From: an uncultured Bacteroidales bacterium
GTDB taxonomy: Bacteria; Bacteroidota; Bacteroidia; Bacteroidales; Muribaculaceae
Length of the DNA stretch: 64,000 nt
Assembly: GCA_946011725.1 (NCBI GenBank)
Contig: CAMGBT010000002.1
Location: 38,435 to 102,434, forward strand
Direction: 5' to 3'
A program made the position numbers and the translations under genes. Under the pieces are notes generated by a model. The model ran no database searches and was not told the DNA's origin. It saw nothing but the letters and a program-made list of their open reading frames with translations. How positions within the stretch are numbered: the first letter of the stretch is position 1; each line of letters starts with the position of its first letter. This document shows, piece after piece, positions 4,275 to 64,000 of this stretch.

Positions 4275-5528
4275 ATGGATAAGCTGATTGTATACGCAGA
4301 TTTCGACTGGTTGGATGCCCCGCGCGTAGTGGGTGAACTGACCCGCCAATCGCTCCGTGGCAACGAAACGTTTGGCTTCCAATTTCATAGCCAATGGCTG
4401 CGCGACTTTGGAAAACTCTTTCTCAGCAATGATTTAATCAACTTTCCCGGTATGCAGTTTTCGCAAGCGGGAAAGCAATTGTTCGGTTGCTTTGCCGATG
4501 CCCTGCCTGACCGCTGGGGGCGCACTCTGTTGGCTCGGCGCGAACTTTTGTCCGCCGCCTGCGAAGGCCGCGCGCCGCGCCGGCTGACGCAGTTCGATTA
4601 TCTAATAGGCATTGACGACTTCTCGCGAATAGGTGCGTTCCGGTTCAAGCAATCGGAGGATGGCCCATTCATAAATAGCGACGAAACCTTGCGCATACCG
4701 CCGATAACGAATTTACGCACGCTTATGGAGGCTGTCAAAGAGGTGGAAGCCGGCGATGCTCGCAATGTATTGCCGCAAGAGAAATGGCTGAATCAGTTGA
4801 TACGGCCCGGCTCCTCGTTAGGTGGCGCCCGTCCAAAGGCTAATGTAATCGGGCATGATGGCCATATCTACATCGCAAAATTTCCTTCGCGTAACGATGA
4901 TTATGACAGTGCCCTGTGGGAACACATCTGCCACTGCTTGGCGGCAATGGCCGGCATAAAAGTGGCTCATACTCAATTGATTGAGAATAGCGCCGGCCAT
5001 CACACCTTGCTCTCGCGCCGATTCGACCGCACCGCTGAAGGCAAGCGCGTGCACTTTGCTTCGGCTCTGACGATGCTCGGCTTGACCGATGGCGACGGTG
5101 CCGACACCGGCCACGGCTACGTGGATATGGTCGACTTCTTGATTCAGTACTGCTCTGATGTGGACAAATGCCTGCAAGAGCTTTACCGCCGCGTGGCATT
5201 TAATATATGTGTGGGTAATACCGACGACCACTTCCGCAATCACGGCTTCCTGCTCACCAAATCCGGATGGGAGCTGTCGCCCGCCTACGATATGAATCCG
5301 ACGCTTGACCGCTATCAAAGCCTGCTTATCAACAGTGCTACTAACGAGTCAAGCCTCCATGTGCTGCTCAACTCCTGCGAGGAGTACCTACTGCCGCGCC
5401 CCGTGGCCGAGAGCATCATACGCCAAGTGGTGCAAGCCGTGGCTAACTGGCCGGCGGTGGCGCGCCGCTTCGGCGCCCCTTCTGCCGAGACGCGCCAATT
5501 CGGCCCGCGCTTCATCACAGCGCTGTAA
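4275..5528 (+). CDS. HipA-like Ser/Thr kinase toxin
   Basis: SSLGGARPKANV loop, NTDDHFRNHGFLL catalytic segment, LSPAYDMNPT; adjacent HipB. Confidence 0.9.
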   Translation: MDKLIVYADFDWLDAPRVVGELTRQSLRGNETFGFQFHSQWLRDFGKLFLSNDLINFPGMQFSQAGKQLFGCFADALPDRWGRTLLARRELLSAACEGRAPRRLTQFDYLIGIDDFSRIGAFRFKQSEDGPFINSDETLRIPPITNLRTLMEAVKEVEAGDARNVLPQEKWLNQLIRPGSSLGGARPKANVIGHDGHIYIAKFPSRNDDYDSALWEHICHCLAAMAGIKVAHTQLIENSAGHHTLLSRRFDRTAEGKRVHFASALTMLGLTDGDGADTGHGYVDMVDFLIQYCSDVDKCLQELYRRVAFNICVGNTDDHFRNHGFLLTKSGWELSPAYDMNPTLDRYQSLLINSATNESSLHVLLNSCEEYLLPRPVAESIIRQVVQAVANWPAVARRFGAPSAETRQFGPRFITAL

Positions 5529-16285: not shown

Positions 16286-17323
16286 TTACGATTGATTTTG
16301 TCTATTTTTGCCGGCCAACATGCCGCAGGCGGCGTCGATGTCCTCGCCGCGCGAGGCGCGGATGGTGGCGGTGACGCCGAGGGCGTTGAGGCGGTCGCGG
16401 AAGGCTTCCATAACTCGGGGCGAGGACGGTTTCATCTCGGCGTCTTCGATTACGTGGAAGCGGATGAGGTTGACCCGCGCCGAGGTGCCCTTGATCAGGT
16501 CGGCCAAGGCGTCGGCGTGGCGGTAGTCGTCGTTGACCGCGCGCCACATTATATATTCCACCGACAGGCGGCGCTGGTGGGCGAAGTCGTAGCCGCGGAG
16601 CAGTTCCATCACGCTGCGGACGGGCCAGGCACGTTCTACCGGCATAAGTTGCTCGCGCTCAGGCGCGTAAGGCGAGTGGACGCTGATGGCAATGTGCACC
16701 TTGGTTTGGTCCAAGAGGCGGCGCAAGCCTTCGATATTGCCGATGCTCGACACGGTGATGCGCTTCGGACTCCAAGCCAAGCCCCACGGCTCGGTGAGGA
16801 TTTCGATGGCTTTGAGCACGGCGTCGAGGTTGTCGGTGGGCTCGCCCATGCCCATAAACACCACGTTGGTGAGCTCTTCGGAGCGCGGCACCGACAGGAT
16901 TTGGTTGATGATCTGGGCGGCGGTGAGCTGGCCGTGGAAGCCTTGGCGACCGGTCATGCAGAACGAGCAGTTCATCTTGCATCCGGCTTGCGACGACACG
17001 CACAGGGTGGCGCGGTCGCCGTCGGGGATGAACACGGCTTCCACATCGCGCCGGGGCGCGCCGCGGAAGAGGTACTTGGCCGTGCCGTCTTTGCTCAACG
17101 CTTGGGTCAACGGCGCCTCGCGCCCCACGCAGTAAGCCTGCTTGAGGGCGGCGCGTGCCTTGAGCGACAGGTCGGTCATATCATCTATATCTGTTACGCG
17201 ACGGGCATATAGCCATGCGGCCATTTGCTTGGCGGCAAAAGGCTTCAAACCCACTTTGGTGCACACCGAGCGCAGCTCATCGAGGGTCATGCCAATCAGC
17301 GGTTGAAGGTCATTTGTTGTCAT
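16286..17323 (-). CDS. rlmN: 23S rRNA (A2503-C2)-methyltransferase
   Basis: CVSSQAGCKMNCSFCMTGRQGF radical-SAM CxxxCxxC; VFMGMGEPTDNLDAV; start set at MTTNDLQPL. Confidence 0.95.
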   Translation of the reverse strand: MTTNDLQPLIGMTLDELRSVCTKVGLKPFAAKQMAAWLYARRVTDIDDMTDLSLKARAALKQAYCVGREAPLTQALSKDGTAKYLFRGAPRRDVEAVFIPDGDRATLCVSSQAGCKMNCSFCMTGRQGFHGQLTAAQIINQILSVPRSEELTNVVFMGMGEPTDNLDAVLKAIEILTEPWGLAWSPKRITVSSIGNIEGLRRLLDQTKVHIAISVHSPYAPEREQLMPVERAWPVRSVMELLRGYDFAHQRRLSVEYIMWRAVNDDYRHADALADLIKGTSARVNLIRFHVIEDAEMKPSSPRVMEAFRDRLNALGVTATIRASRGEDIDAACGMLAGKNRQNQS

Positions 17324-17441
17324 TGGCTGAAAGTTTCCACAAAAGTAGCAATAATTTCTCAAATAATCGCTACTTTTTTGGTTTTCTATCAAAAAAATTA
17401 AAAAAAATCTTCGAAAGGCTTGTTATGTCGCAAAAAATTCG

Positions 17442-17450
17442 TAACTTTGC
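17442..17450 (+). promoter_or_regulatory. -7 box TAACTTTGC for tRNA-Leu
   Basis: 9 nt upstream of tRNA 5' end. Confidence 0.65.
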
Positions 17451-17459
17451 ACCGCAAAC

Positions 17460-17541
17460 GCCCGGATGGCGGAATCGGTAGACGCGACGGTCTCAAACAC
17501 CGTTGGGGCGACCCATCCCGGTTCGAGCCCGGGTCCGGGTA
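17460..17541 (+). tRNA. tRNA-Leu (anticodon CAA)
   Basis: GCCCGGA acceptor with TCCGGGT; D-arm; anticodon loop CTCAAAC; variable arm; T-arm CCCGGTTCGAGCCCGGG; CCA not encoded. Confidence 0.93.
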
Positions 17542-17542
17542 C

Positions 17543-17571
17543 AAAGCGAAGGAGCAATCCTTCGCTTTTTT
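17543..17571 (+). terminator. Intrinsic terminator of tRNA-Leu
   Basis: AAAGCGAAGGA-GCAA-TCCTTCGCTTT followed by T-tract. Confidence 0.85.
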
Positions 17572-17588
17572 GGTATGCGGGCGGGCTC

Positions 17589-17608
17589 CTGCCCGAGCAG
17601 GAGCTCGG
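17589..17608 (-). repeat. Dispersed palindromic 20-mer CCGAGCTCYTGCTCGGGCAG (also 61679-61698 +; shorter form 11382-11395)
   Basis: 19/20 identity between 17589-17608 (rc) and 61679-61698. Confidence 0.85.
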
Positions 17609-17637
17609 AGCAAGTGCAAAAAAGGCTGCGCGCGGCG

Positions 17638-17656
17638 GTTCGGCTTCCGCCTCACC
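17638..17656 (-). repeat. Dispersed 19-mer GGTGAGGCGGAAGCCGAAC (also 3822-3840 +, variant near 40973-40991 +)
   Basis: 19/19 identity with 3822-3840. Confidence 0.85.
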
Positions 17657-17763
17657 ACTGGACCCACGGCGCGGCGGCGCGGGTGATTGGGGATTTATTG
17701 TGTGGGAAGTGTTAAAAATTGCTCGTTTTTGCGATTTTTTTTGGTCGGAACGGCTTTTTTATG

Positions 17764-17772
17764 TAACTTTGC
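17764..17772 (+). promoter_or_regulatory. -7 box TAACTTTGC for ECF sigma gene
   Basis: 77 nt upstream of ATG at 17850. Confidence 0.55.
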
Positions 17773-17849
17773 ACCAATTATCGATTATTATTAACTAATT
17801 CTTTTGCCTATCGCCTATATCTACTCTTAATTTTTAATTCGGAATAGAA

Positions 17850-48391: not shown

Positions 48392-49909
48392 ATGATTACA
48401 GGCCAAATAAAGAACCAAATCGACCAAATATGGGATACTTTCTGGGAAAGTGCCGGCATAACTAACCCCATGACCGTGCTCGAGCAGATGACTTACCTAT
48501 TCTTCATCAAGATGCTCGACGATGCTCAAACCCGCCGCGAAGCCGTGGATAATTCGCTCGATCTGCCCCACGCTTCCGACGACACTTTCTGCTATGGCGA
48601 ATGGCTCAACCCCGAATCCAACGAGAAAGTGCCATACGACGACCTCCGCTGGCATCGGTTCAAGGATCTACCCCCGGAGCAGATGTACCGCAACATGCAG
48701 CGCAACGTCTTCCCCTTCATCAAATCTCTCAACCGAGGCGAGGATTCGGCCTACTCCCGCTTCATGGGCAACGCCAACTTCCTAATTGCATCGCCCCGTG
48801 CATTGGCCAAAATCATCGACGGTATCGACAAGTTGGAGATGACTGACCGCGACACCATGGGCGATGTCTACGAGTACATCCTCGGCAAGATGGCCGCATC
48901 CGGCAAGAACGGCCAGTTCCGCACCCCGCGCCACATCATCCGCATGATGGTGAGGCTGATGCGTCCAACCCTCAGCGACACCATCTGCGACCCCGCCATG
49001 GGCAGCGCCGGTTTCATAGTCGAAGCCGCCAACTATGTCAAAGAGAACTATCGCTCCGAACTGATGTTGGCCCACAACGATAACCACTTCCGCAACACCA
49101 TGCTCCACGGATTCGACACCGACCAAACCATGCTCCGCATCGGCGCCATGAACCTTATGCTCCACGATATCAACAACCCCGACGTGGCCTTCCGCGATTC
49201 TCTCTCCACCGACAACACCGACACCGACCGCTACACCCTCATCTTGGCCAACCCGCCATTTGCCGGCAACCTCGACTACGAATCCGTGTCCAAATCGCTG
49301 TTGGCCATCGCCAAAACCAAGAAGACCGAATTGCTGTTCTTGGCGCTGTTCCTGCGATCGTTGGCTGTGGGCGGCCGCTGCGCATCCATCGTGCCCGACG
49401 GCGTGCTCACCGGATCCTCCAACGCCCACAAAGCCATCCGCCAAGCCATCGTCGATGGCAACCGCCTCCAAGCCGTGATCTCCATGCCCTCGGGCGTGTT
49501 CAAGCCTTACGCCGGTGTGTCCACCGCCATCCTCATCTTCACCAAAACCAACGCCGGCGGCACTGACCGCGTGTGGTTCTATGATATGAAGGCCGACGGC
49601 TTCTCGCTCGACGACAAGCGGAACCCCGTGGCCGACAACGACATACCCGACATCATCTCGCGCTTCCACAACCTCGACGCCGAGGCCGACCGCGCTCGCA
49701 CCGACCAATCCTTCATGGTACCCGTCGACGAAATCCGCCAACACGACTACGACTTGGCCTTCAACACCTACAAAGAGACCATCCGCCAACAAGTGCAATA
49801 CGAAGCGCCGGAGCTCCACCTCACCCCCCCCACCGCCCTCGCACCCCACATCACCCCCGGCCTCGCCGAGCTGCAATCAATGCTGACGAACAACCCCGCC
49901 GCGAATTAG
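48392..49909 (+). CDS. hsdM: Type I restriction-modification DNA methyltransferase subunit
   Basis: FRTPRHIIRMMVRLMRPTLSDTICDPAMGSAGF; LILANPPFAG (NPPF motif). Confidence 0.96.
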   Translation: MITGQIKNQIDQIWDTFWESAGITNPMTVLEQMTYLFFIKMLDDAQTRREAVDNSLDLPHASDDTFCYGEWLNPESNEKVPYDDLRWHRFKDLPPEQMYRNMQRNVFPFIKSLNRGEDSAYSRFMGNANFLIASPRALAKIIDGIDKLEMTDRDTMGDVYEYILGKMAASGKNGQFRTPRHIIRMMVRLMRPTLSDTICDPAMGSAGFIVEAANYVKENYRSELMLAHNDNHFRNTMLHGFDTDQTMLRIGAMNLMLHDINNPDVAFRDSLSTDNTDTDRYTLILANPPFAGNLDYESVSKSLLAIAKTKKTELLFLALFLRSLAVGGRCASIVPDGVLTGSSNAHKAIRQAIVDGNRLQAVISMPSGVFKPYAGVSTAILIFTKTNAGGTDRVWFYDMKADGFSLDDKRNPVADNDIPDIISRFHNLDAEADRARTDQSFMVPVDEIRQHDYDLAFNTYKETIRQQVQYEAPELHLTPPTALAPHITPGLAELQSMLTNNPAAN

Positions 49910-50125
49910 CCCATCCTGCGAATCAGCCCAATTAGTCCAATTAGTCCAATTCACCAGCCTTGTGCCCATCCTGCGAATTAGCCCTATTAGTCTTATTAGT
50001 CCAATTCAACCACCTCGCGCCCATCCTGCGAATTAGCCCAATTAGTCCAATTAGTCCAATTCACCAGCCTTGCGCCCTTCCTGCGAATTAGCCCTATTAG
50101 TCTTATTAGTCCAATCCAACCACTT
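49909..50125. repeat. Four tandem ~55-bp units in ABAB order, each built from ATTAGTCC/ATTAGCCC words
   Basis: Units at 49909, 49964, 50019, 50074; unit 1 starts in the hsdM stop codon. Confidence 0.97.
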
Positions 50126-50137
50126 AAATCCACCCTT

Positions 50138-50689
50138 ATGCCGGACACCTTCCTTCCACCCAAAGGTAATTACCGTGCCTTGATTGCCTTCCAGAAGGCC
50201 CAGTGTATCTATGATATTACCTTCTACTTCGCCCACACCCACCTCCGGCACGGCGACCGCACCATCGACCAAATGATTCAAGCCGCCCGCAGTGGCCGAC
50301 AGAACATTGCCGAGGGTGCATCTGCCGGTGTCACCTCCGCCGAAACCGAGATTAAGCTAACCAACGTGGCTCGGGCAAGCCTACAGGAACTGTTGCTCGA
50401 CTATGAGGACTTCCTGAGGGTGAGGAACCTCGAACAATGGGAAATGCACTCGCCAAAGGCTATCCAAACGCGCAAGGTCTGCGCCGCTCACAACGATTCC
50501 GCATTCTATACCGAAGCTATCAAACAGCGCTCTGCCGAAACCACCGCCAACATCGCCATCACCCTTATCCACCAAACCGATGTATTTCTGCGCAGGTTGT
50601 TAGAAAAACTTCAAGAAGATTTCGTCCACGACGGAGGCATCAAAGAATTAATGTTCAAAGCTCGCACTGATTACCGCAAAAATCATTAA
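50138..50689 (+). CDS. Four-helix-bundle (S23/IVP-related) protein
   Basis: MIQAARSGRQNIAEGASAGVTSAETEIKLTNVARASLQELLLDYEDFLR. Confidence 0.88.
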   Translation: MPDTFLPPKGNYRALIAFQKAQCIYDITFYFAHTHLRHGDRTIDQMIQAARSGRQNIAEGASAGVTSAETEIKLTNVARASLQELLLDYEDFLRVRNLEQWEMHSPKAIQTRKVCAAHNDSAFYTEAIKQRSAETTANIAITLIHQTDVFLRRLLEKLQEDFVHDGGIKELMFKARTDYRKNH

Positions 50690-50692
50690 ACT

Positions 50693-51799
50693 ATGAAACA
50701 TAACTGGCAATATAAAAAATTAGGAGAAATCTGCGACAAGGGTTCTACTAATCTTATGCAGAAGAATCTTGAATTGGAAGAGGAAGGCTTTGAAGTTTTT
50801 GGTGCTTCCGGAAGCCTTGGAAGGATTGGATTTTATCAGCAAGAGCACCCTTATGTTGGGATAGTGAAAGATGGCTCTGGTGTAGGGCGCTGCAACATTT
50901 ATCCGGCAAAATCATCTTTGCTCGGCACTATGCAATATATACTTGCAAAGGATTGTGTGAGCAATGCGTTTCTTTGTTATCTACTAAAATCATTAGATTT
51001 GAGTAAGTATGTGAATGGCGCAGCTATTCCACACATTTATTTTAGAGATTACAAAAAAGAGATAGTTCCTCTTCCCCCGCTTGAGGAGCAGCAGCGGATA
51101 GTGGCGGAGTTGGATAGAATTAATGCGGTGATGGAGGATTGCCGACAGCTACTGCGCACCCTCGACGCCCTCGCCCAATCCCTCTTCTACGACTCATTCG
51201 GCGACCCTATCTCCAACCCAAAAGCTTGGCCAACTCAGCCGCTGAAAGATGTAACAATTTGCATAACGGATGGAGATCACATGGCTCCTCCTAAATCTAA
51301 TGATGGTATTCCATTTATAACCATATCAAATATCAATAAGGATAATAATTCAATTGATTTCTCCGATACTTTTTTTGTCCCCCATAATTATTACGATTCC
51401 TTGCCTGAGTATAGGAAGCCAATAAAAGGGGATGTTCTATACACTGTTACAGGTTCTTATGGCATTCCTGTACTTATTGATTTTGAAAGACAATTTTGCT
51501 TTCAACGACACATAGGCCTTATTAGGCCAAAAAAGAACTTGGATTCTATTTTCCTCGCTCAATGGTGCAACACGAAATCAATAAAAGCAGTAGCTGATAG
51601 AGTTGCAAATGGCATTGCGCAGAAAACAGTATCGCTGAATTCTCTTAGAAAATTTCCTATTATACTGCCGCCTTTGGAGCTCCAGCAGCAATTCGCCCGC
51701 CGCATTGAGGCCATTGAGGCGCAGAAGAAGGCTGTGGAGAAGACTATCGCCACGTTGCAAACTCTCCTCGACAGCCGCATGGATTATTGGTTTAACTAA
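50693..51799 (+). CDS. hsdS: Type I restriction specificity subunit
   Basis: Two TRD-like halves each ending in conserved regions: VPLPPLEEQQRIVAELDRI and ILPPLELQQQFARRIEAIE. Confidence 0.94.
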   Translation: MKHNWQYKKLGEICDKGSTNLMQKNLELEEEGFEVFGASGSLGRIGFYQQEHPYVGIVKDGSGVGRCNIYPAKSSLLGTMQYILAKDCVSNAFLCYLLKSLDLSKYVNGAAIPHIYFRDYKKEIVPLPPLEEQQRIVAELDRINAVMEDCRQLLRTLDALAQSLFYDSFGDPISNPKAWPTQPLKDVTICITDGDHMAPPKSNDGIPFITISNINKDNNSIDFSDTFFVPHNYYDSLPEYRKPIKGDVLYTVTGSYGIPVLIDFERQFCFQRHIGLIRPKKNLDSIFLAQWCNTKSIKAVADRVANGIAQKTVSLNSLRKFPIILPPLELQQQFARRIEAIEAQKKAVEKTIATLQTLLDSRMDYWFN

Positions 51800-51810
51800 T
51801 TCGTTTTGCT

Positions 51811-52836
51811 ATGAAACAAGAACTTTTTTTACCTGAATCAGAATACGACAAACTTCTTTCCAATATCGATGCTGTTTGGGAAGCAGCTAAAATCAATGCC
51901 GCATTAGCTGTTAATGCACAACTTCTTGATGCTAATTGGCAAACCGGCCGATACATAGTGGAGTTTGAACAGGGCGGAAACATTCGTGCTGAATATGGCG
52001 CTAAATTATTGTTGAAATTGTCTCGCGACCTAACATTATCTCACGGCAAGGGTTTTAGCCGTTCCAATCTTACATATATGAGGAAGTTGTATCTCGCATT
52101 CCCAAAATGTGAGACGCTGTCTCACAAATTGACTTGGAGCCATTATTTTGAACTTTTGAAATGTGACGATCCACTCGAATTTAAGTTTTATTTCAACGAG
52201 GCAATCAGTCAGAGATGGAATGTGCGAGAACTTAAGCGCCAAATCAAATCTTCACTTTTTCATCGTTTGGCTCTGAGTACAGATAAAGAAGGTGTCCTTG
52301 CCCTTGCAGAATCAGGCCATCAAATTTTGTCTGCTGAAGATATCCTCCATGATCCTTTTGTATTGGAGTTTACGGGGATATCTCAAATGGAACACTACAA
52401 AGAGAGCGACCTTGAAAAGGCTCTGAAAGATAATATGGAACGTTTTCTATTGGAACTTGGCCGTGGTTTTGCTTTCGTAGGCAGACAATATATCATTCCT
52501 GTAGGCAGCCGGAATTTCAAAGTTGATTTGGTGTTTTACCACTGTATATTAAAATGTTACGTTTTGATTGACCTCAAACGTAATGAGATAGAACATTACG
52601 ACATTGGGCAGATGAATCTTTATCTCAACTATTTCAAAAATGAGGTATGTATGCCCGATGATAATCCTCCTATTGGCATTATTTTGGGTGCAAAGAAAGA
52701 CCAAATACTGATGGAATATGCCCTGCAGGGTATTACCAATCAATTGTTCGTGGCTCGTTACCAATTGTATCTTCCTAAAAAAGAAGAATTACAAGCTCAA
52801 TTGAATAAAATCCTAAATAACATCGAAACATTGTAG
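51811..52836 (+). CDS. DUF1016 (YhcG-like) PDDEXK nuclease-domain protein
   Basis: ANWQTGRYIVEFEQGGNIRAEYGAKLLLKLSRDLTLSHGKGFSRSNLTYMRKLYLAF; NFKVDLVFYHCILKCYVLIDLKRNEI (D..DLK). Confidence 0.92.
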   Translation: MKQELFLPESEYDKLLSNIDAVWEAAKINAALAVNAQLLDANWQTGRYIVEFEQGGNIRAEYGAKLLLKLSRDLTLSHGKGFSRSNLTYMRKLYLAFPKCETLSHKLTWSHYFELLKCDDPLEFKFYFNEAISQRWNVRELKRQIKSSLFHRLALSTDKEGVLALAESGHQILSAEDILHDPFVLEFTGISQMEHYKESDLEKALKDNMERFLLELGRGFAFVGRQYIIPVGSRNFKVDLVFYHCILKCYVLIDLKRNEIEHYDIGQMNLYLNYFKNEVCMPDDNPPIGIILGAKKDQILMEYALQGITNQLFVARYQLYLPKKEELQAQLNKILNNIETL

Positions 52837-52838
52837 CT

Positions 52839-55800
52839 ATGTTGAACTTCGATTACTTGAAACAGATTGAGGTGCTCGCCCCGCTCCACCAACTGTGCGA
52901 TATGTGCGAGCAACGTCACTATACCGAGCCGGACACTGCCGCCATCAACGCGCGCAAGGCGCTGGAATGGCTGGTTAAGGCCATCTATACGATGAAGAAT
53001 GAGCCGATGCCGGAACGAGCCTCGTTGTACGATTTGATTCAAGCGCCCACGTTCGCCAACTTCATCGCCGACGGCGACATCATGCGCGCCGCCGACTGGG
53101 TGCGCCGCGTGGGCAATAACGCCGCCCACAACGTGCAGGTGACACGCCGCGATGCCTTCTTCACCGTGCTCAATCTCTACAACTTGGTGAGCGCGGTGAT
53201 GCTCAAACTGCGCGTGTTCAGCTCAATTCCGCCTTTCGACAGCTCGCTGCTGCCCACGCAGCCGCAGCCGCCGCAGATGGTGGTGGAGCGCGAGGAGCAG
53301 TCGCCGCAGGCATTCGCCGCCACGGTGGAGCCGCAAGCGGTGACGGCAGCAGCCGAGGTGACGGCAGCGGTGTCGTGGGACGGAATCTCCGAAGCTGAAA
53401 CGCGCCGCCTGTTCATCGACCTGATGTTGCGCGAGGCCGGTTGGGAAGTGCTCTCCGTGGAGGGCGACATAGCGCCGATGCGCGCTTGCATCGAGGTGGA
53501 AGTGCAGGGGATGCCTAACCAAGCCGGAAAGGGCTATGCCGACTATGTGCTGTTCGGCGCCGATGGCACACCCTTGGCCGTAATCGAAGCCAAGCGAACC
53601 TCGGTGGATGCCAACGTGGGTGCGCATCAGGCCGAGCTATACGCCGACTGCTTGGAGCGTCGCTACCACGTGCGCCCTATCATTTATTACACCAACGGTT
53701 ACGAAATCTACTGCGTGGACGGTTTGGGATATCCCCCGCGACGGCTCTTCGCCTTCCACTCGCCGGCCGATATGCAACTGCTGATGTCGCGCCGCAATGC
53801 ACGCCGCGATATCGCCGACCTCAGCATCAACGACCAAATTTCCGACCGCTACTACCAAAAGCGCGCCATCAAGAACATGTGCGAGTGGTTCAATGCCTAC
53901 CACCGCCGCGGCCTGCTGGTGATGGCCACCGGTACGGGCAAAACCCGCACGGCCATTTCGCTGGTGGACGTGCTCCAGCGCAACGGCCGGGTGAAGAACA
54001 CCCTATTCTTGGCCGACCGCACCTCGTTGGTCAATCAAGCCGCGCGCAACTTCGCCAAGCTGTTGCCCAACTGTCCCACCACCGTGCTCAGCGACAAGAC
54101 CACCGTCGTCGACCCTAATGCGCGCATCACATTCTCCACCTACCAAACGATGATTAACTATGTCAACACCGACCGCAAACCCTACTCCGTGGGCCGCTTC
54201 GACTTAATTATCATCGACGAAGCCCACCGCTCGGTGTTCGGCAAGTACGGCGACATATTCCGCTACTTCGACTCGCTGCTGGTGGGGCTGACCGCCACCC
54301 CGCGCGACCAAGTAGATCGTTCTACTTACGAACTGCTCGAACTGGAGGGCGGCGAACCCACCGACTGCTATGAGTACGAAACCGCCGTGGACGACGGCTA
54401 CTTGGTCGACTACGTCGGATTCATCCGCGGGGCGAAGGTGGTGAACGAGGGCATCCGCTACGACGACCTCTCCGACGAGGAAAAGCAGCAGCTCGAGCAA
54501 GTGTGGGAGTACGAACAGGTCAACAAGGATCCCGACGAAGAGTGGAAGCCCCGCGACATCGCCGAAAATGAAATCTACAAGTACATCTATAATATCGACA
54601 CCATCGACAAAATGCTGCAAGATCTGATGGAGCACGGGCTGAAGGTGCAGTCGGGCGAGGTCATCGGCAAAACTATCATCTTCGCCATGAACTCCAAGAC
54701 GGCCAAGCTCATCGTGGAGCGGTTCAACGTGCTCTACCCGCAGTGCGGCCCGGATTTCTGCCGCCAAATCGACTACTCCATCAAGTATTCGCAAGATTTG
54801 ATCGATCGCTTCAGCCTGCGCCACAAGTTGCCGCAGATCGCTGTGTCGGTGGATATGCTCGACACGGGTATCGACGTGCCCGACGTGCTTAACTTGGTGT
54901 ATTTCAAGCGAGTACGCTCGCGCATCAAGTTCATGCAGATGATTGGCCGCGGCACTCGCCTCGCCCCCGACATCTTCGGCCCTGGCAAACATAAGCAGCA
55001 GTTCTATATCTTCGACTGGGGCGGCAATTTCGCTTACTTCCGCGAGAACCCCAAGGAAGGGAAGGTGGTGACGGCGCTGTCGCTCACCGAGCGGCTGTTT
55101 GGAGTGCGCGCCGATATCGCCTGCGCTCTCCAAGCAGCTGTATATCAGGAGGATGCATTTGCCAAAGGTCTCCACGACCGGCTGAAAGCCGAGCTGTTGG
55201 CGCAAGTCTCCTCGCTCAGCGATGCCCACATAGCTGTGCGCAACCACTGGCCCACCGTGGCTCGCTACCGCAACGCTGACGCCTGGCAGTATGTGTCGGA
55301 AACCGACGTGCTTAACCTCAAAAACGAGATAGCCCCGCTGCTACCCAAGTCGATGGAGAACGAGTTGGCCAAAAAGTTCGACCTGCTGTCGCTCTACGTG
55401 CAGCTCGGCATCGTCGACGCGGCCTTCAACGCCGCCCCTCACGAGGAGCAAATCACCAAAATCGCCGAGGCCTTGCGCGGCCGCGCTTCCATCCCCGAAA
55501 TTCAGGCTAAGATGCCGCTGCTCAGGGAGATAGGAACATCGGCATTCTGGGAAAACAAGACCCTATCCTCAATCGAAAATATGCGCCTCCAGGTGCGCGA
55601 CTTGCTCAAGTATCTGGAAGGGCAGGAGGATAAAACCTTCACGGTCAACATCATAGACACGGTGACCGACGGCGGTATAGCCGGCAAAATCAACACCACC
55701 ATGTCGTACCGCGAGAAGTTGCTCGACTTCCTCACCCGCCACCGCGACCACCCCGTGCTTCTCAAAATCCACAACTTGGAGCAGCTGACCGCCGCCGACA

Positions 55801-56165
55801 TCGAAGAATTGGAGCACATTCTGTGGTTCGAACTCGGATCCAAGGACGACTACGAGCGCTACTTGCGCCACGAGCAGCTGACCGCCGATATGTCTGTGGC
55901 CGCATTCATCCGCAAGGTGGTAGGCCTCGACCGCGCCAAAGCCATCCGCCTGTTCACCGAGTTCATCTCCGCCAACTCGCTAACCGCCGACCAAGAGGAA
56001 TTCATCAACAATATCCTCAACTACGTGTGCGTCAACGGCGGCATGGACAGAACAGTCCTCCGCAGCAACCGCCTGTTCTACAACTCACTCCTCTGCAACT
56101 TCCCCAACAAAGTGCCCCAAGTAGCCGAATTCCTGGCCATGCTCAACTCCGCCATCACAGCCTAA
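52839..56165 (+). CDS. hsdR: Type I restriction endonuclease motor/nuclease subunit (EcoEI-like)
   Basis: PLAVIEAKRTSVD nuclease motif; MATGTGKTRTAISLV Walker A; IIIDEAHRSVFGKYG; VSVDMLDTGIDVPDVLNLVYFKRVRSRIKFMQMIGRGTRL. Confidence 0.96.
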   Translation: MLNFDYLKQIEVLAPLHQLCDMCEQRHYTEPDTAAINARKALEWLVKAIYTMKNEPMPERASLYDLIQAPTFANFIADGDIMRAADWVRRVGNNAAHNVQVTRRDAFFTVLNLYNLVSAVMLKLRVFSSIPPFDSSLLPTQPQPPQMVVEREEQSPQAFAATVEPQAVTAAAEVTAAVSWDGISEAETRRLFIDLMLREAGWEVLSVEGDIAPMRACIEVEVQGMPNQAGKGYADYVLFGADGTPLAVIEAKRTSVDANVGAHQAELYADCLERRYHVRPIIYYTNGYEIYCVDGLGYPPRRLFAFHSPADMQLLMSRRNARRDIADLSINDQISDRYYQKRAIKNMCEWFNAYHRRGLLVMATGTGKTRTAISLVDVLQRNGRVKNTLFLADRTSLVNQAARNFAKLLPNCPTTVLSDKTTVVDPNARITFSTYQTMINYVNTDRKPYSVGRFDLIIIDEAHRSVFGKYGDIFRYFDSLLVGLTATPRDQVDRSTYELLELEGGEPTDCYEYETAVDDGYLVDYVGFIRGAKVVNEGIRYDDLSDEEKQQLEQVWEYEQVNKDPDEEWKPRDIAENEIYKYIYNIDTIDKMLQDLMEHGLKVQSGEVIGKTIIFAMNSKTAKLIVERFNVLYPQCGPDFCRQIDYSIKYSQDLIDRFSLRHKLPQIAVSVDMLDTGIDVPDVLNLVYFKRVRSRIKFMQMIGRGTRLAPDIFGPGKHKQQFYIFDWGGNFAYFRENPKEGKVVTALSLTERLFGVRADIACALQAAVYQEDAFAKGLHDRLKAELLAQVSSLSDAHIAVRNHWPTVARYRNADAWQYVSETDVLNLKNEIAPLLPKSMENELAKKFDLLSLYVQLGIVDAAFNAAPHEEQITKIAEALRGRASIPEIQAKMPLLREIGTSAFWENKTLSSIENMRLQVRDLLKYLEGQEDKTFTVNIIDTVTDGGIAGKINTTMSYREKLLDFLTRHRDHPVLLKIHNLEQLTAADIEELEHILWFELGSKDDYERYLRHEQLTADMSVAAFIRKVVGLDRAKAIRLFTEFISANSLTADQEEFINNILNYVCVNGGMDRTVLRSNRLFYNSLLCNFPNKVPQVAEFLAMLNSAITA

Positions 56166-61710: not shown

Positions 61711-62208
61711 TTAGCGGAGGATGACGTGGTTGGAGAGGGAGAGGCGCACGTGGTTGCGGTTCCAGAAGTCTTGCAGGTATTGCATGCGGGAGCACTGGAA
61801 GTTGGGGTGGAGGCGGTTGCAGGCGAAGGCTAACTTGTGGCGGTATTGGGAGATGTCGTATGAGGCTTTGAAGTGGTCGATGGTGGTTTGCAGCTGGTCT
61901 TCGACGGCGTGGCGCACCCATTTGTGGCGCTGTTCTTTGAGCTCGATGAACACGATGTGGGTGGCGGAGGTGAGCATGGCGTCGCAGCGGAAGTCGCGCG
62001 AGCCATCGGGGCGGCGCAGGTCCACGCAGTTGTCCACCGCGGTGAAGTTGACCGGGCGGCCGGTGAGGTTGGTGATGCGGGCGATCCACTCGCGCGGGCG
62101 TTCGTAGCTTACGTAGGCGGGAGTGCCGTGGGCGCGGTCGCAGATGCCGAACTCCTTGGCCGTGACGTTCTTAGTCTGGCATTTTTTAACGAAAAAGTCA
62201 GCACCCAT
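61711..62208 (-). CDS. Small predicted PD-(D/E)XK-like protein, overlaps the AAA ATPase gene
   Basis: RDFRCDAMLTSATHIVFIELKEQRHKWVRHAVEDQLQTTIDHF: D-x(n)-ELK followed by Q-containing helix. Confidence 0.55.
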   Translation of the reverse strand: MGADFFVKKCQTKNVTAKEFGICDRAHGTPAYVSYERPREWIARITNLTGRPVNFTAVDNCVDLRRPDGSRDFRCDAMLTSATHIVFIELKEQRHKWVRHAVEDQLQTTIDHFKASYDISQYRHKLAFACNRLHPNFQCSRMQYLQDFWNRNHVRLSLSNHVILR

Positions 62209-63421
62209 ATTCTATATCCTCCTCAATTTCAAGTAGTTCGCCGAAAATATCGTTGGTGAGGCCGGCTTCAATGTTGAGCAGATTGGCATCGGAGGGCAGG
62301 CCGTAGTTTACGGGCAGCAAGCGTGCTTGGCCGTCGGTGAGTTGGTAGATTCGCAACAGATCGGGGTTGATGCAACTATGTTCGGGCACGATTTTGTCGA
62401 GGCGTTCGAGCAGGCACGCTTGGTCGGCGGCTTGTTGGCGCAGCTGCCAGGCCTTGGCGGCGAGGGTGAGGTAGTTGATCATGAAGGGCGAGTGGGTGGT
62501 GCATACCAACTTGTTGTCCTCCAAGCGGTTGGCGATGGCGATGAGGTAGTAAAGGATGTCCTTCTGCGACGATGGGTAGAGGTTTTGCTCCGGCTCTTCC
62601 ACAATGTTGATGAACTCGGAGTAGCTGAAGCGGTTCGACAGCTGATTGAGGGCGGCGGCTTTCACTTCGTCGCTGAGGTCCATGTCGATGATTGATGCCA
62701 CTTGGCGGGCGATGACCTCGCGCTCGGCCATCGACAGCTCGTTGGCGTCGCGTTTGGAGTTCTCCACCTTGTCGCTGATGTAGCGGGTGACCAGGCACAG
62801 CGATAGGGCTGACTGGTAGCCGCTCGAGGCGGCCGACAGGCGGATGCGGTAGTCCTTGCCGCGCAGCCACGACACACCGTTGAGCTTGTCGTACTCAAAC
62901 ACGGCATCGCCCACGGGCATCTCGTAGCCCTGGGTGTAGGCGGCTCGCGCCATCTCGAATTCGCCCAAGAAGGTGCTGACGGATTCGGGTAGCGACTTGA
63001 TGTTGGCCGGCGAACCGATGGTGGTGAGGAAGTTGCGCTCGGCGGGCACGTAGAGCACTTTCGACATGGCGGTGGAGGTGTCGTCGGCGCTGTTGGCGTT
63101 GATTTTCAACGCGTTATCTTTGTAGGTGAAGGTGTAGAATCGGCCGGTGAACTCGATTTCGGTGTCGTCGTGGAAGTAGTCGGTCAGGCGCGAGTAGGCG
63201 CAGAGCGAACTGCGGAAGCGCTGGTATTGCTCCACGTATTTTACGGTGAGCATGCCGCGCTTGAGGCGCTTTTCCAGCCAGGTGAACAGCGAGTAGAGTT
63301 TGGCGATGGTCGACTTGCCCGAGCCTTGCGGCCCGATGAACAGCGTGTATTTATTGAACTCGGCATCGACGTGGGTCAATGCGCCGAAATTGCGGATTTT
63401 GAGTTGAGGGAGATGTGTCAT
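62198..63421 (-). CDS. AAA/ABC-type (OLD/RecF-like) ATPase
   Basis: LKIRNFGALTHVDAEFNKYTLFIGPQGSGKSTIAKL; LSAASSGYQSALSL signature; INIVEEPEQNLYPSSQ Walker B; CTTHSPFMINYL; start trimmed to MTHLPQLKI. Confidence 0.88.
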   Translation of the reverse strand: MTHLPQLKIRNFGALTHVDAEFNKYTLFIGPQGSGKSTIAKLYSLFTWLEKRLKRGMLTVKYVEQYQRFRSSLCAYSRLTDYFHDDTEIEFTGRFYTFTYKDNALKINANSADDTSTAMSKVLYVPAERNFLTTIGSPANIKSLPESVSTFLGEFEMARAAYTQGYEMPVGDAVFEYDKLNGVSWLRGKDYRIRLSAASSGYQSALSLCLVTRYISDKVENSKRDANELSMAEREVIARQVASIIDMDLSDEVKAAALNQLSNRFSYSEFINIVEEPEQNLYPSSQKDILYYLIAIANRLEDNKLVCTTHSPFMINYLTLAAKAWQLRQQAADQACLLERLDKIVPEHSCINPDLLRIYQLTDGQARLLPVNYGLPSDANLLNIEAGLTNDIFGELLEIEEDIEYGC

Positions 63422-63444
63422 AGTCAGGTGGGTTAGATTTACGT

Positions 63445-63453
63445 GCAAATGTA
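63445..63453 (-). promoter_or_regulatory. -7 box TACATTTGC for AAA ATPase gene
   Basis: 23 nt upstream of ATG 63421 and inside the longer listed ORF. Confidence 0.55.
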
Positions 63454-63628
63454 GCAACAATTTTCGAGATTTGCAAGCGAAAAAGTGGCAAATAGGTGCA
63501 AAAAATTGGCCGGGATTACGTCTCTGCTTTAGCGATTTCCAACAAAGGCTTTTCGAGGAGCAAACTTTTTTGGATTTTTTTTGTTTAAATTTTGCGGATA
63601 CGCAAATAATTCGTATCTTTGCACCGGA

Positions 63629-63697
63629 GTTCATTCCTCATCTGAGGAAAGGAAATCGAAAAACGCAAGCCTTGAAGCTCTGCGTTTTTTGCTTTTT
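63629..63697 (+). ncRNA. Candidate sRNA C: orphan promoter to terminator unit
   Basis: -7 box TATCTTTGC 63614-63622; hairpin TTCCTCA-tc-TGAGGAA 63634-63649; terminator stem AACGCA..TGCGTTTTTT 63661-63690. Confidence 0.45.
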
Positions 63698-64000
63698 ATA
63701 GGATATCGGGCAATCTACGGCGATTATATTTACTCATAATTTTATTTCTCGCTGCATCTTTCCCTTCGAGATGATATGCTGTAAGCAGGTAATATGGATC
63801 AATGTAAAAACCGGTTGTTAAATCTGCAAAAGAAAGAGTGTCAAAAATTGATCGCGAGTAGCACAGTTGGCAAAAATCTACAGGAACCGATATGCCGCCG
63901 TTGCGCCAACAAAAATGGATATAACGCGAACCGCGGAGCGGTTTCGCATACCCCCCAGCCCCACAATGGCACGAAGCGCAGGGCAAGCGAAGCGGCCGGA

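What the first reader, a model, noticed from the sequence alone, without database searches (positions are those of the whole stretch)
61711..63453. Two-gene AAA ATPase + predicted PD-(D/E)XK module, a candidate defence system
Seen: an ATPase with Walker A GPQGSGKST, an ABC-like signature, EEPEQ Walker B and an H-loop (THSPF) overlaps by 11 bp a 165-aa protein carrying CDAML-x8-FIELKEQ, which fits a PD-(D/E)XK core. Established: ATPase/nuclease pairs such as Septu, Gabija and OLD systems have comparable architecture, but those use HNH, UvrD-linked or TOPRIM nucleases. Inference: a compact, translationally coupled ATPase/nuclease anti-phage unit whose effector family I do not recognise.
Basis: partly seen in the sequence, partly recalled or inferred. 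Interest (0 to 1): 0.72.

Follow-up and report, generated by a model that had tools for sequence, protein, structure and literature searches.

The report
Known candidate ATPase–nuclease phage defence pair
Two overlapping genes encode an ATPase and a small DNA- or RNA-cutting enzyme that form an intact example of an already catalogued but untested bacterial anti-virus system (PDC-M29), related to a system shown to work in cholera bacteria, so the find is real but not new.

Summary
A 407-aa OLD/PtuA-type ABC ATPase (62198-63421, -) overlaps by 11 bp a 165-aa protein (61711-62208, -). The small protein has a PD-(D/E)XK active site: D59, C75-D76, E89-x-K91, Q105, nearly invariant in 111 relatives. 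It models confidently (pLDDT 93.8) with the strand-strand-helix-strand order expected of that fold.

It is not an unrecognised system. Both genes match, full length, PADLOC-DB's candidate system PDC-M29 (1e-141 and 7e-58). The pair is conserved: 76 of the 80 best ATPase relatives across several phyla have the nuclease directly downstream. Profile comparison joins it to a provirus family whose residue numbering matches WonAB of Vibrio cholerae, an ABC ATPase plus PD-(D/E)xK nuclease proven to abort phage infection by stopping translation.

Most likely mechanism: the ATPase dimer holds and licenses the nuclease, and a phage cue releases an infection-aborting cut, probably of RNA. That is inferred by homology; nothing here shows defence activity, trigger or substrate. 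A flank test for defence-island enrichment was inconclusive, but the module is accessory: the adjacent acetyltransferase gene is in 21/21 genus genomes, and none of 11 inspected sites carries the module. Novelty: new member of a known kind.

The parts
62198..63421 (-). M29A: OLD/PtuA-type ABC ATPase, 407 aa (Walker A K36, conserved R129, signature S199-S200-G201, E275/E276, H310)
   Evidence: PADLOC PDC-M29A 1.3e-141 over residues 6-402; Pfam AAA_15 1e-19; AF2 pLDDT 88.0, best PDB fold match Septu PtuA 8eea E 2.4e-11
61711..62208 (-). M29B: small PD-(D/E)XK-type nuclease, 165 aa (D59, C75-D76, E89-x-K91, Q105)
   Evidence: PADLOC PDC-M29B 7.3e-58 over residues 1-163; AF2 pLDDT 93.8, pTM 0.90; conservation
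62198..62208 (-). 11-bp overlap of the two reading frames (translational coupling inferred), with a Shine-Dalgarno-like GAGGAGG just upstream of the second ATG
63446..63476 (-). Bacteroidetes-type promoter-like site TTG-N20-TACATTTG, about 25 bp upstream of the M29A start codon

Best explanation
An intact, accessory two-gene PDC-M29 module: an ABC-ATPase sensor/switch (M29A) and a PD-(D/E)XK nuclease effector (M29B), in the same broad family as WonAB. Proposed working: M29A dimerises with ATP between Walker A and signature motifs (predicted from motifs and fold), binds, stabilises and licenses M29B (inferred from WonAB), and a phage-derived cue switches it so that M29B cuts a nucleic acid and stops the infected cell before phage is released. 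By analogy with WonAB the target is more likely RNA (tRNA or rRNA, stopping translation) than chromosomal DNA, at little better than even odds. Shown here: the genes, intact motifs, fold order, conserved pairing, and family membership. Inferred: complex formation, trigger, substrate, and defence itself.
For: Full-length PADLOC matches for both genes. M29B directly downstream of M29A in 76 of the 80 best genome loci (the others are one contig end, one broken A with B intact, and two A without B), and in nearly all order- and phylum-level loci with enough sequence. A/B distance correlation r = 0.72, 0 of 500 permutations. Catalytic positions in 111 pairs: K91 111, E89 110 (one Q), position 76 99 D + 12 E, D59 110, Q105 105. 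B model: strand 77-80, strand 84-91, helix 98-116, strand 124-131, with D76, E89/K91 and Q105 at the canonical places. Divergent B members hit NERD, PDDEXK_9, SduA_C, Cas4 and CARF-PDDEXK models weakly. Profile-profile match to WonB-like (98.9%, 2.6e-17) and WonA-like (100%, 3.5e-55) proteins of viral contigs, whose numbering (K33, R181, E300, H336; B K71) matches the residues mutated in WonAB (K34, R182, E300, H333; K71). Accessory distribution.
Against: No functional test of any PDC-M29 was found; no held paper names it. Two other PADLOC candidates (PDC-M63AB, PDC-S04) showed no activity in one native-host study. The B model has no significant PDB hit (best E 0.15), although most of the top matches are PD-(D/E)XK enzymes. 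Flanks of 17 M29 loci were not clearly richer in PADLOC hits than 18 control stretches.
Confidence: 0.8

Rival explanations
1. Same module, but M29B cuts phage or other DNA directly, as Septu-type or restriction-like nucleases do, rather than RNA. (A rival on the substrate only; it shares the module identity with the best explanation.)
For: M29A's best fold matches are Septu PtuA structures; weak fold matches of M29B are mostly DNA enzymes: Nt.BspD6I, EcoT38I, BstEII, McrC, MUS81, and the CARF nucleases Can2/Cdn1.
Against: Overproduced WonB, the nearest tested kind of effector, left genomic DNA intact and stopped translation. Fold matches are not significant.
Confidence: 0.4
2. A toxin-antitoxin-like or general stress module: M29A restrains M29B and the pair serves maintenance rather than phage defence.
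For: Compact overlapping operon, accessory and patchy; defence-island enrichment not shown.
Against: The family was listed among defence candidates; in WonAB the ATPase is needed for toxicity, ruling out simple sequestration.
Confidence: 0.15
3. A DNA-repair or nucleic-acid maintenance pair resembling RecF/Rad50-type ATPases with a nuclease.
For: Rad50 and RecF appear among lower-ranked fold matches.
Against: Absent from most genomes of the genus and family, absent beside the same acetyltransferase gene in 11 inspected relatives; PtuA and retron effectors rank above Rad50/RecF.
Confidence: 0.05

Closest known systems
PDC-M29 (PADLOC-DB 2.0 phage defence candidate, M29A + M29B)
   Same: Both proteins match full length; same gene order and adjacency.
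   Different: No difference found. The candidate system itself has no published test in the held library.
WonAB of the Vibrio cholerae WASA-1 prophage, and the wider OLD-ABC ATPase + novel REase operon family it was placed in (PMC12137116)
   Same: ABC ATPase then small PD-(D/E)xK nuclease in one operon; equivalent catalytic residues by proxy family; homologous at profile level in both proteins.
   Different: M29A has a shorter stretch from Walker A to the conserved R (93 vs about 148 residues) and a longer one from signature to Walker B (about 76 vs about 30); M29B has about 20 more residues before the catalytic K; sequence identity to the WonA-like proteins is only about 21-35%.
Septu (PtuAB) and retron Ec78/Ec83 PtuA
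   Same: Closest solved fold of the ATPase (8eea, E 2.4e-11).
   Different: PtuB is an HNH nuclease (established knowledge); M29B is of PD-(D/E)XK type.
PD-T4-4
   Same: ATPase + nuclease operon; 9 of 33 M29A relatives hit PD-T4-4_A below 1e-10.
   Different: P0001's PD-T4-4_A score is marginal (2.5e-8) against 1e-141 for M29A.
OLD, Gabija, PARIS
   Same: Share the OLD-type ABC ATPase (AriA hit 1.8e-22).
   Different: No TOPRIM match in the ATPase, no UvrD helicase or TOPRIM partner next to it.

Membership tests
PDC-M29 | M29A protein matched over full length | tested here: met
   1.3e-141, residues 6-402 to profile 3-409/410
PDC-M29 | M29B protein matched over full length | tested here: met
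   7.3e-58, residues 1-163 to profile 1-162/164
PDC-M29 | The two genes adjacent, A then B, same strand | tested here: met
   11-bp overlap
PDC-M29 | Anti-phage activity | not testable with these tools
   no publication found
WonAB / OLD-ABC ATPase + PD-(D/E)xK family | OLD-type ABC ATPase motifs intact, incl. Walker A K, conserved R, Walker B E, H-loop | tested here: met
   K36, R129, E275/E276, H310; R, E, E and H invariant in 111 relatives
WonAB / OLD-ABC ATPase + PD-(D/E)xK family | Second gene a PD-(D/E)xK nuclease | tested here: met
   conserved D-(x12)-E-x-K and Q; model topology
WonAB / OLD-ABC ATPase + PD-(D/E)xK family | Homology of both proteins to WonA and WonB themselves | tested here: inconclusive
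   strong profile match to WonAB-like proteins of viral contigs, but the WonAB sequences were not held, so the link is by residue numbering
WonAB / OLD-ABC ATPase + PD-(D/E)xK family | Abortive infection by translation arrest | not testable with these tools
   needs experiment
Septu (PtuAB) | PtuB HNH nuclease partner | tested here: not met
   partner is M29B, PD-(D/E)XK type
Gabija | GajA with TOPRIM plus GajB UvrD-like helicase | tested here: not met
   no TOPRIM match in P0001; no helicase adjacent
OLD / PARIS | TOPRIM nuclease fused or adjacent | tested here: not met

The most novel reading that the evidence does not exclude
The M29 branch differs from WonAB in sensor and target: its rearranged ATPase inserts and longer nuclease N-terminus would sense a different phage cue and cut a different nucleic acid, making it a separate mechanistic type of ABC-ATPase/PD-(D/E)XK immunity.
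Probability: 0.25. Interest if true: 0.45.

Novelty: new member of a known kind. Interest (0 to 1): 0.22.

Why it matters
It gives an intact Bacteroidales example of a widespread defence candidate for which no test was found and, through conserved residues and profile matches, ties PDC-M29 to a proven system (WonAB). That turns a catalogue entry into a specific testable hypothesis with named residues.

Tried and rejected
Sequence search of the PDB with M29B or its profile gave nothing useful. Fold search of the M29B model gave no significant hit in PDB or in viral models. A single-protein scan of genome contigs with M29B found no relatives; the ATPase alignment worked. NCBIfam has no model that recognises either protein as its own. 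A defence-island test by scanning flanking ORFs against PADLOC, with control stretches, showed no clear excess: the control also held several defence genes, and only family tallies, not per-gene counts, are returned, so it is inconclusive. Rfam found nothing around the module. Rejected: Septu, Gabija, OLD and PARIS membership (partner or domain missing).

Full report
What is there. On the minus strand at the end of the contig (the window ends where contig C2 ends), a 407-aa ATPase gene (63421-62198) overlaps by 11 bp a 165-aa gene (62208-61711). The ATPase carries Walker A GPQGSGKST, an atypical SSG signature, EEPEQ and THSPF. A Bacteroidetes-type promoter-like site lies just upstream of the start codon, which supports the shorter start over the longer reading frame.

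The small protein is very probably a PD-(D/E)XK nuclease. In an alignment of 38 relatives E89 and K91 are invariant, and D59, C75 and Q105 are at least 90% conserved; in 111 pairs K91 is in all, E89 in all but one, position 76 is always D or E, and D59 in all but one. The AlphaFold2 model is confident (pLDDT 93.8, pTM 0.90) and places D76 at the head of a strand, E89 and K91 in the next strand, and Q105 in the following helix, then another strand, the usual core order. Database support is only suggestive: divergent members hit NERD, PDDEXK_9, SduA_C, Cas4 and CARF-PDDEXK models weakly, and the fold search has no hit below E = 0.1, though most of the best matches are PD-(D/E)XK enzymes. I did not have the coordinates to measure the active-site geometry.

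The ATPase models well (pLDDT 88.0) and its closest solved folds are Septu PtuA and retron PtuA, before Rad50 and RecF. It lacks a TOPRIM match.

The pair is already catalogued. PADLOC-DB 2.0 recognises the proteins as PDC-M29A (1.3e-141) and PDC-M29B (7.3e-58), both over full length. PDC entries are candidates from a guilt-by-embedding survey, mostly unvalidated (PMC12988326; PMC11811056); two other candidates tested in a native host showed no activity (PMC12409345). No held paper mentions PDC-M29.

Pairing and spread. Of the 80 best relatives of the ATPase in species genomes (Bacteroidota, Chlorobiota, Cyanobacteria, Pseudomonadota, Spirochaetota and others), 76 have M29B right behind. The four others are a contig end (L116), a broken A with B intact (L131), and two A genes without B (L081, L102). 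Distances of A and B correlate across 111 pairs (r = 0.72, 0 of 500 permutations); this partly reflects shared ancestry of the host loci, but fits inheritance as a unit. Distribution is patchy: 23 of 294 genomes of the order. The adjacent GNAT gene is in 21 of 21 genus genomes, and none of the 11 inspected copies has M29 beside it, so the module is accessory.

Relation to proven systems. In Vibrio cholerae, WonAB (ABC ATPase + PD-(D/E)xK nuclease) aborts infection by ICP1; mutants K34A, R182A, E300A, H333A of WonA and K71A of WonB lose protection; excess WonB stops translation without degrading genomic DNA, and needs WonA (PMC12137116). A scan of viral contigs found distant relatives, most with a short B gene behind A. 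Their key residues (in L160, A: K33, R181, E300, H336; B: K71) fall at or within three of the WonAB numbers. Profile comparison joins them to M29 (A: 100%, 3.5e-55; B: 98.9%, 2.6e-17). So the WonAB mechanism is a reasonable model for M29; but M29A differs in its inserts, and WonAB's own sequence was not compared.

Mechanism. Shown: intact motifs, fold order, operon layout, conserved pairing. Inferred: an ATP-dependent M29A dimer that holds and licenses M29B, a phage cue, and an aborting cut. I favour RNA as the target because of WonAB, at little better than even odds over DNA.

Weak points. The flank test for defence islands was inconclusive. In the window itself a type I restriction operon with a YhcG-type nuclease lies about 5.5 kb away (48392-56165), with sugar-transfer-type genes between, so it is near but not adjacent.

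Verdict. A correct, well-read observation of an ordinary kind of thing: a new copy of a known, untested defence candidate with a validated relative.

Noticed in passing
window 63591-63700 (+): Divergent Bacteroidetes-type promoter-like site (TTTG-N19-TATCTTTG) followed by about 75 nt folding into a hairpin and a terminator-like stem with a T-run (MFE -24.1, z -3.1); no Rfam match; in 20 other genus genomes only promoter-like pieces match. Possible small RNA next to the module.
   Followed up: partly
window 48392-56165 (+): Type I restriction operon (hsdM, hsdS, hsdR) with a YhcG/DUF1016 PD-(D/E)XK protein inserted between hsdS and hsdR, and a 23S_rRNA_IVP-like protein between hsdM and hsdS.
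   Followed up: partly
L155 (Microcystis phage Mic1, record 16586-17824): A cyanophage carries a full-length M29A relative (42% identity) with no M29B within 5 kb, beside a DNA adenine methylase; might be a decoy or counter-defence protein.
   Followed up: partly
L064:6286-8898 (Alysiella crassa): M29B frame runs without a stop into a glyS-like (glycyl-tRNA synthetase beta subunit) sequence, so the module sits directly before, or is fused to, glyS.
   Followed up: no
L103:6218-6724: An M29B with the catalytic E replaced by Q (FVQLK) beside an intact M29A; possibly inactive or an assembly error.
   Followed up: no
window 61984-61986 (codon of M29B C75): The cysteine before the catalytic Asp is conserved in 108 of 111 relatives and in most WonB-like proteins, in place of the Pro of the PD-(D/E)XK name.
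   Followed up: no
window 4275-5528 (+): HipA-like kinase gene (HipA_C 1.5e-48), possible toxin-antitoxin or persistence module.
   Followed up: no
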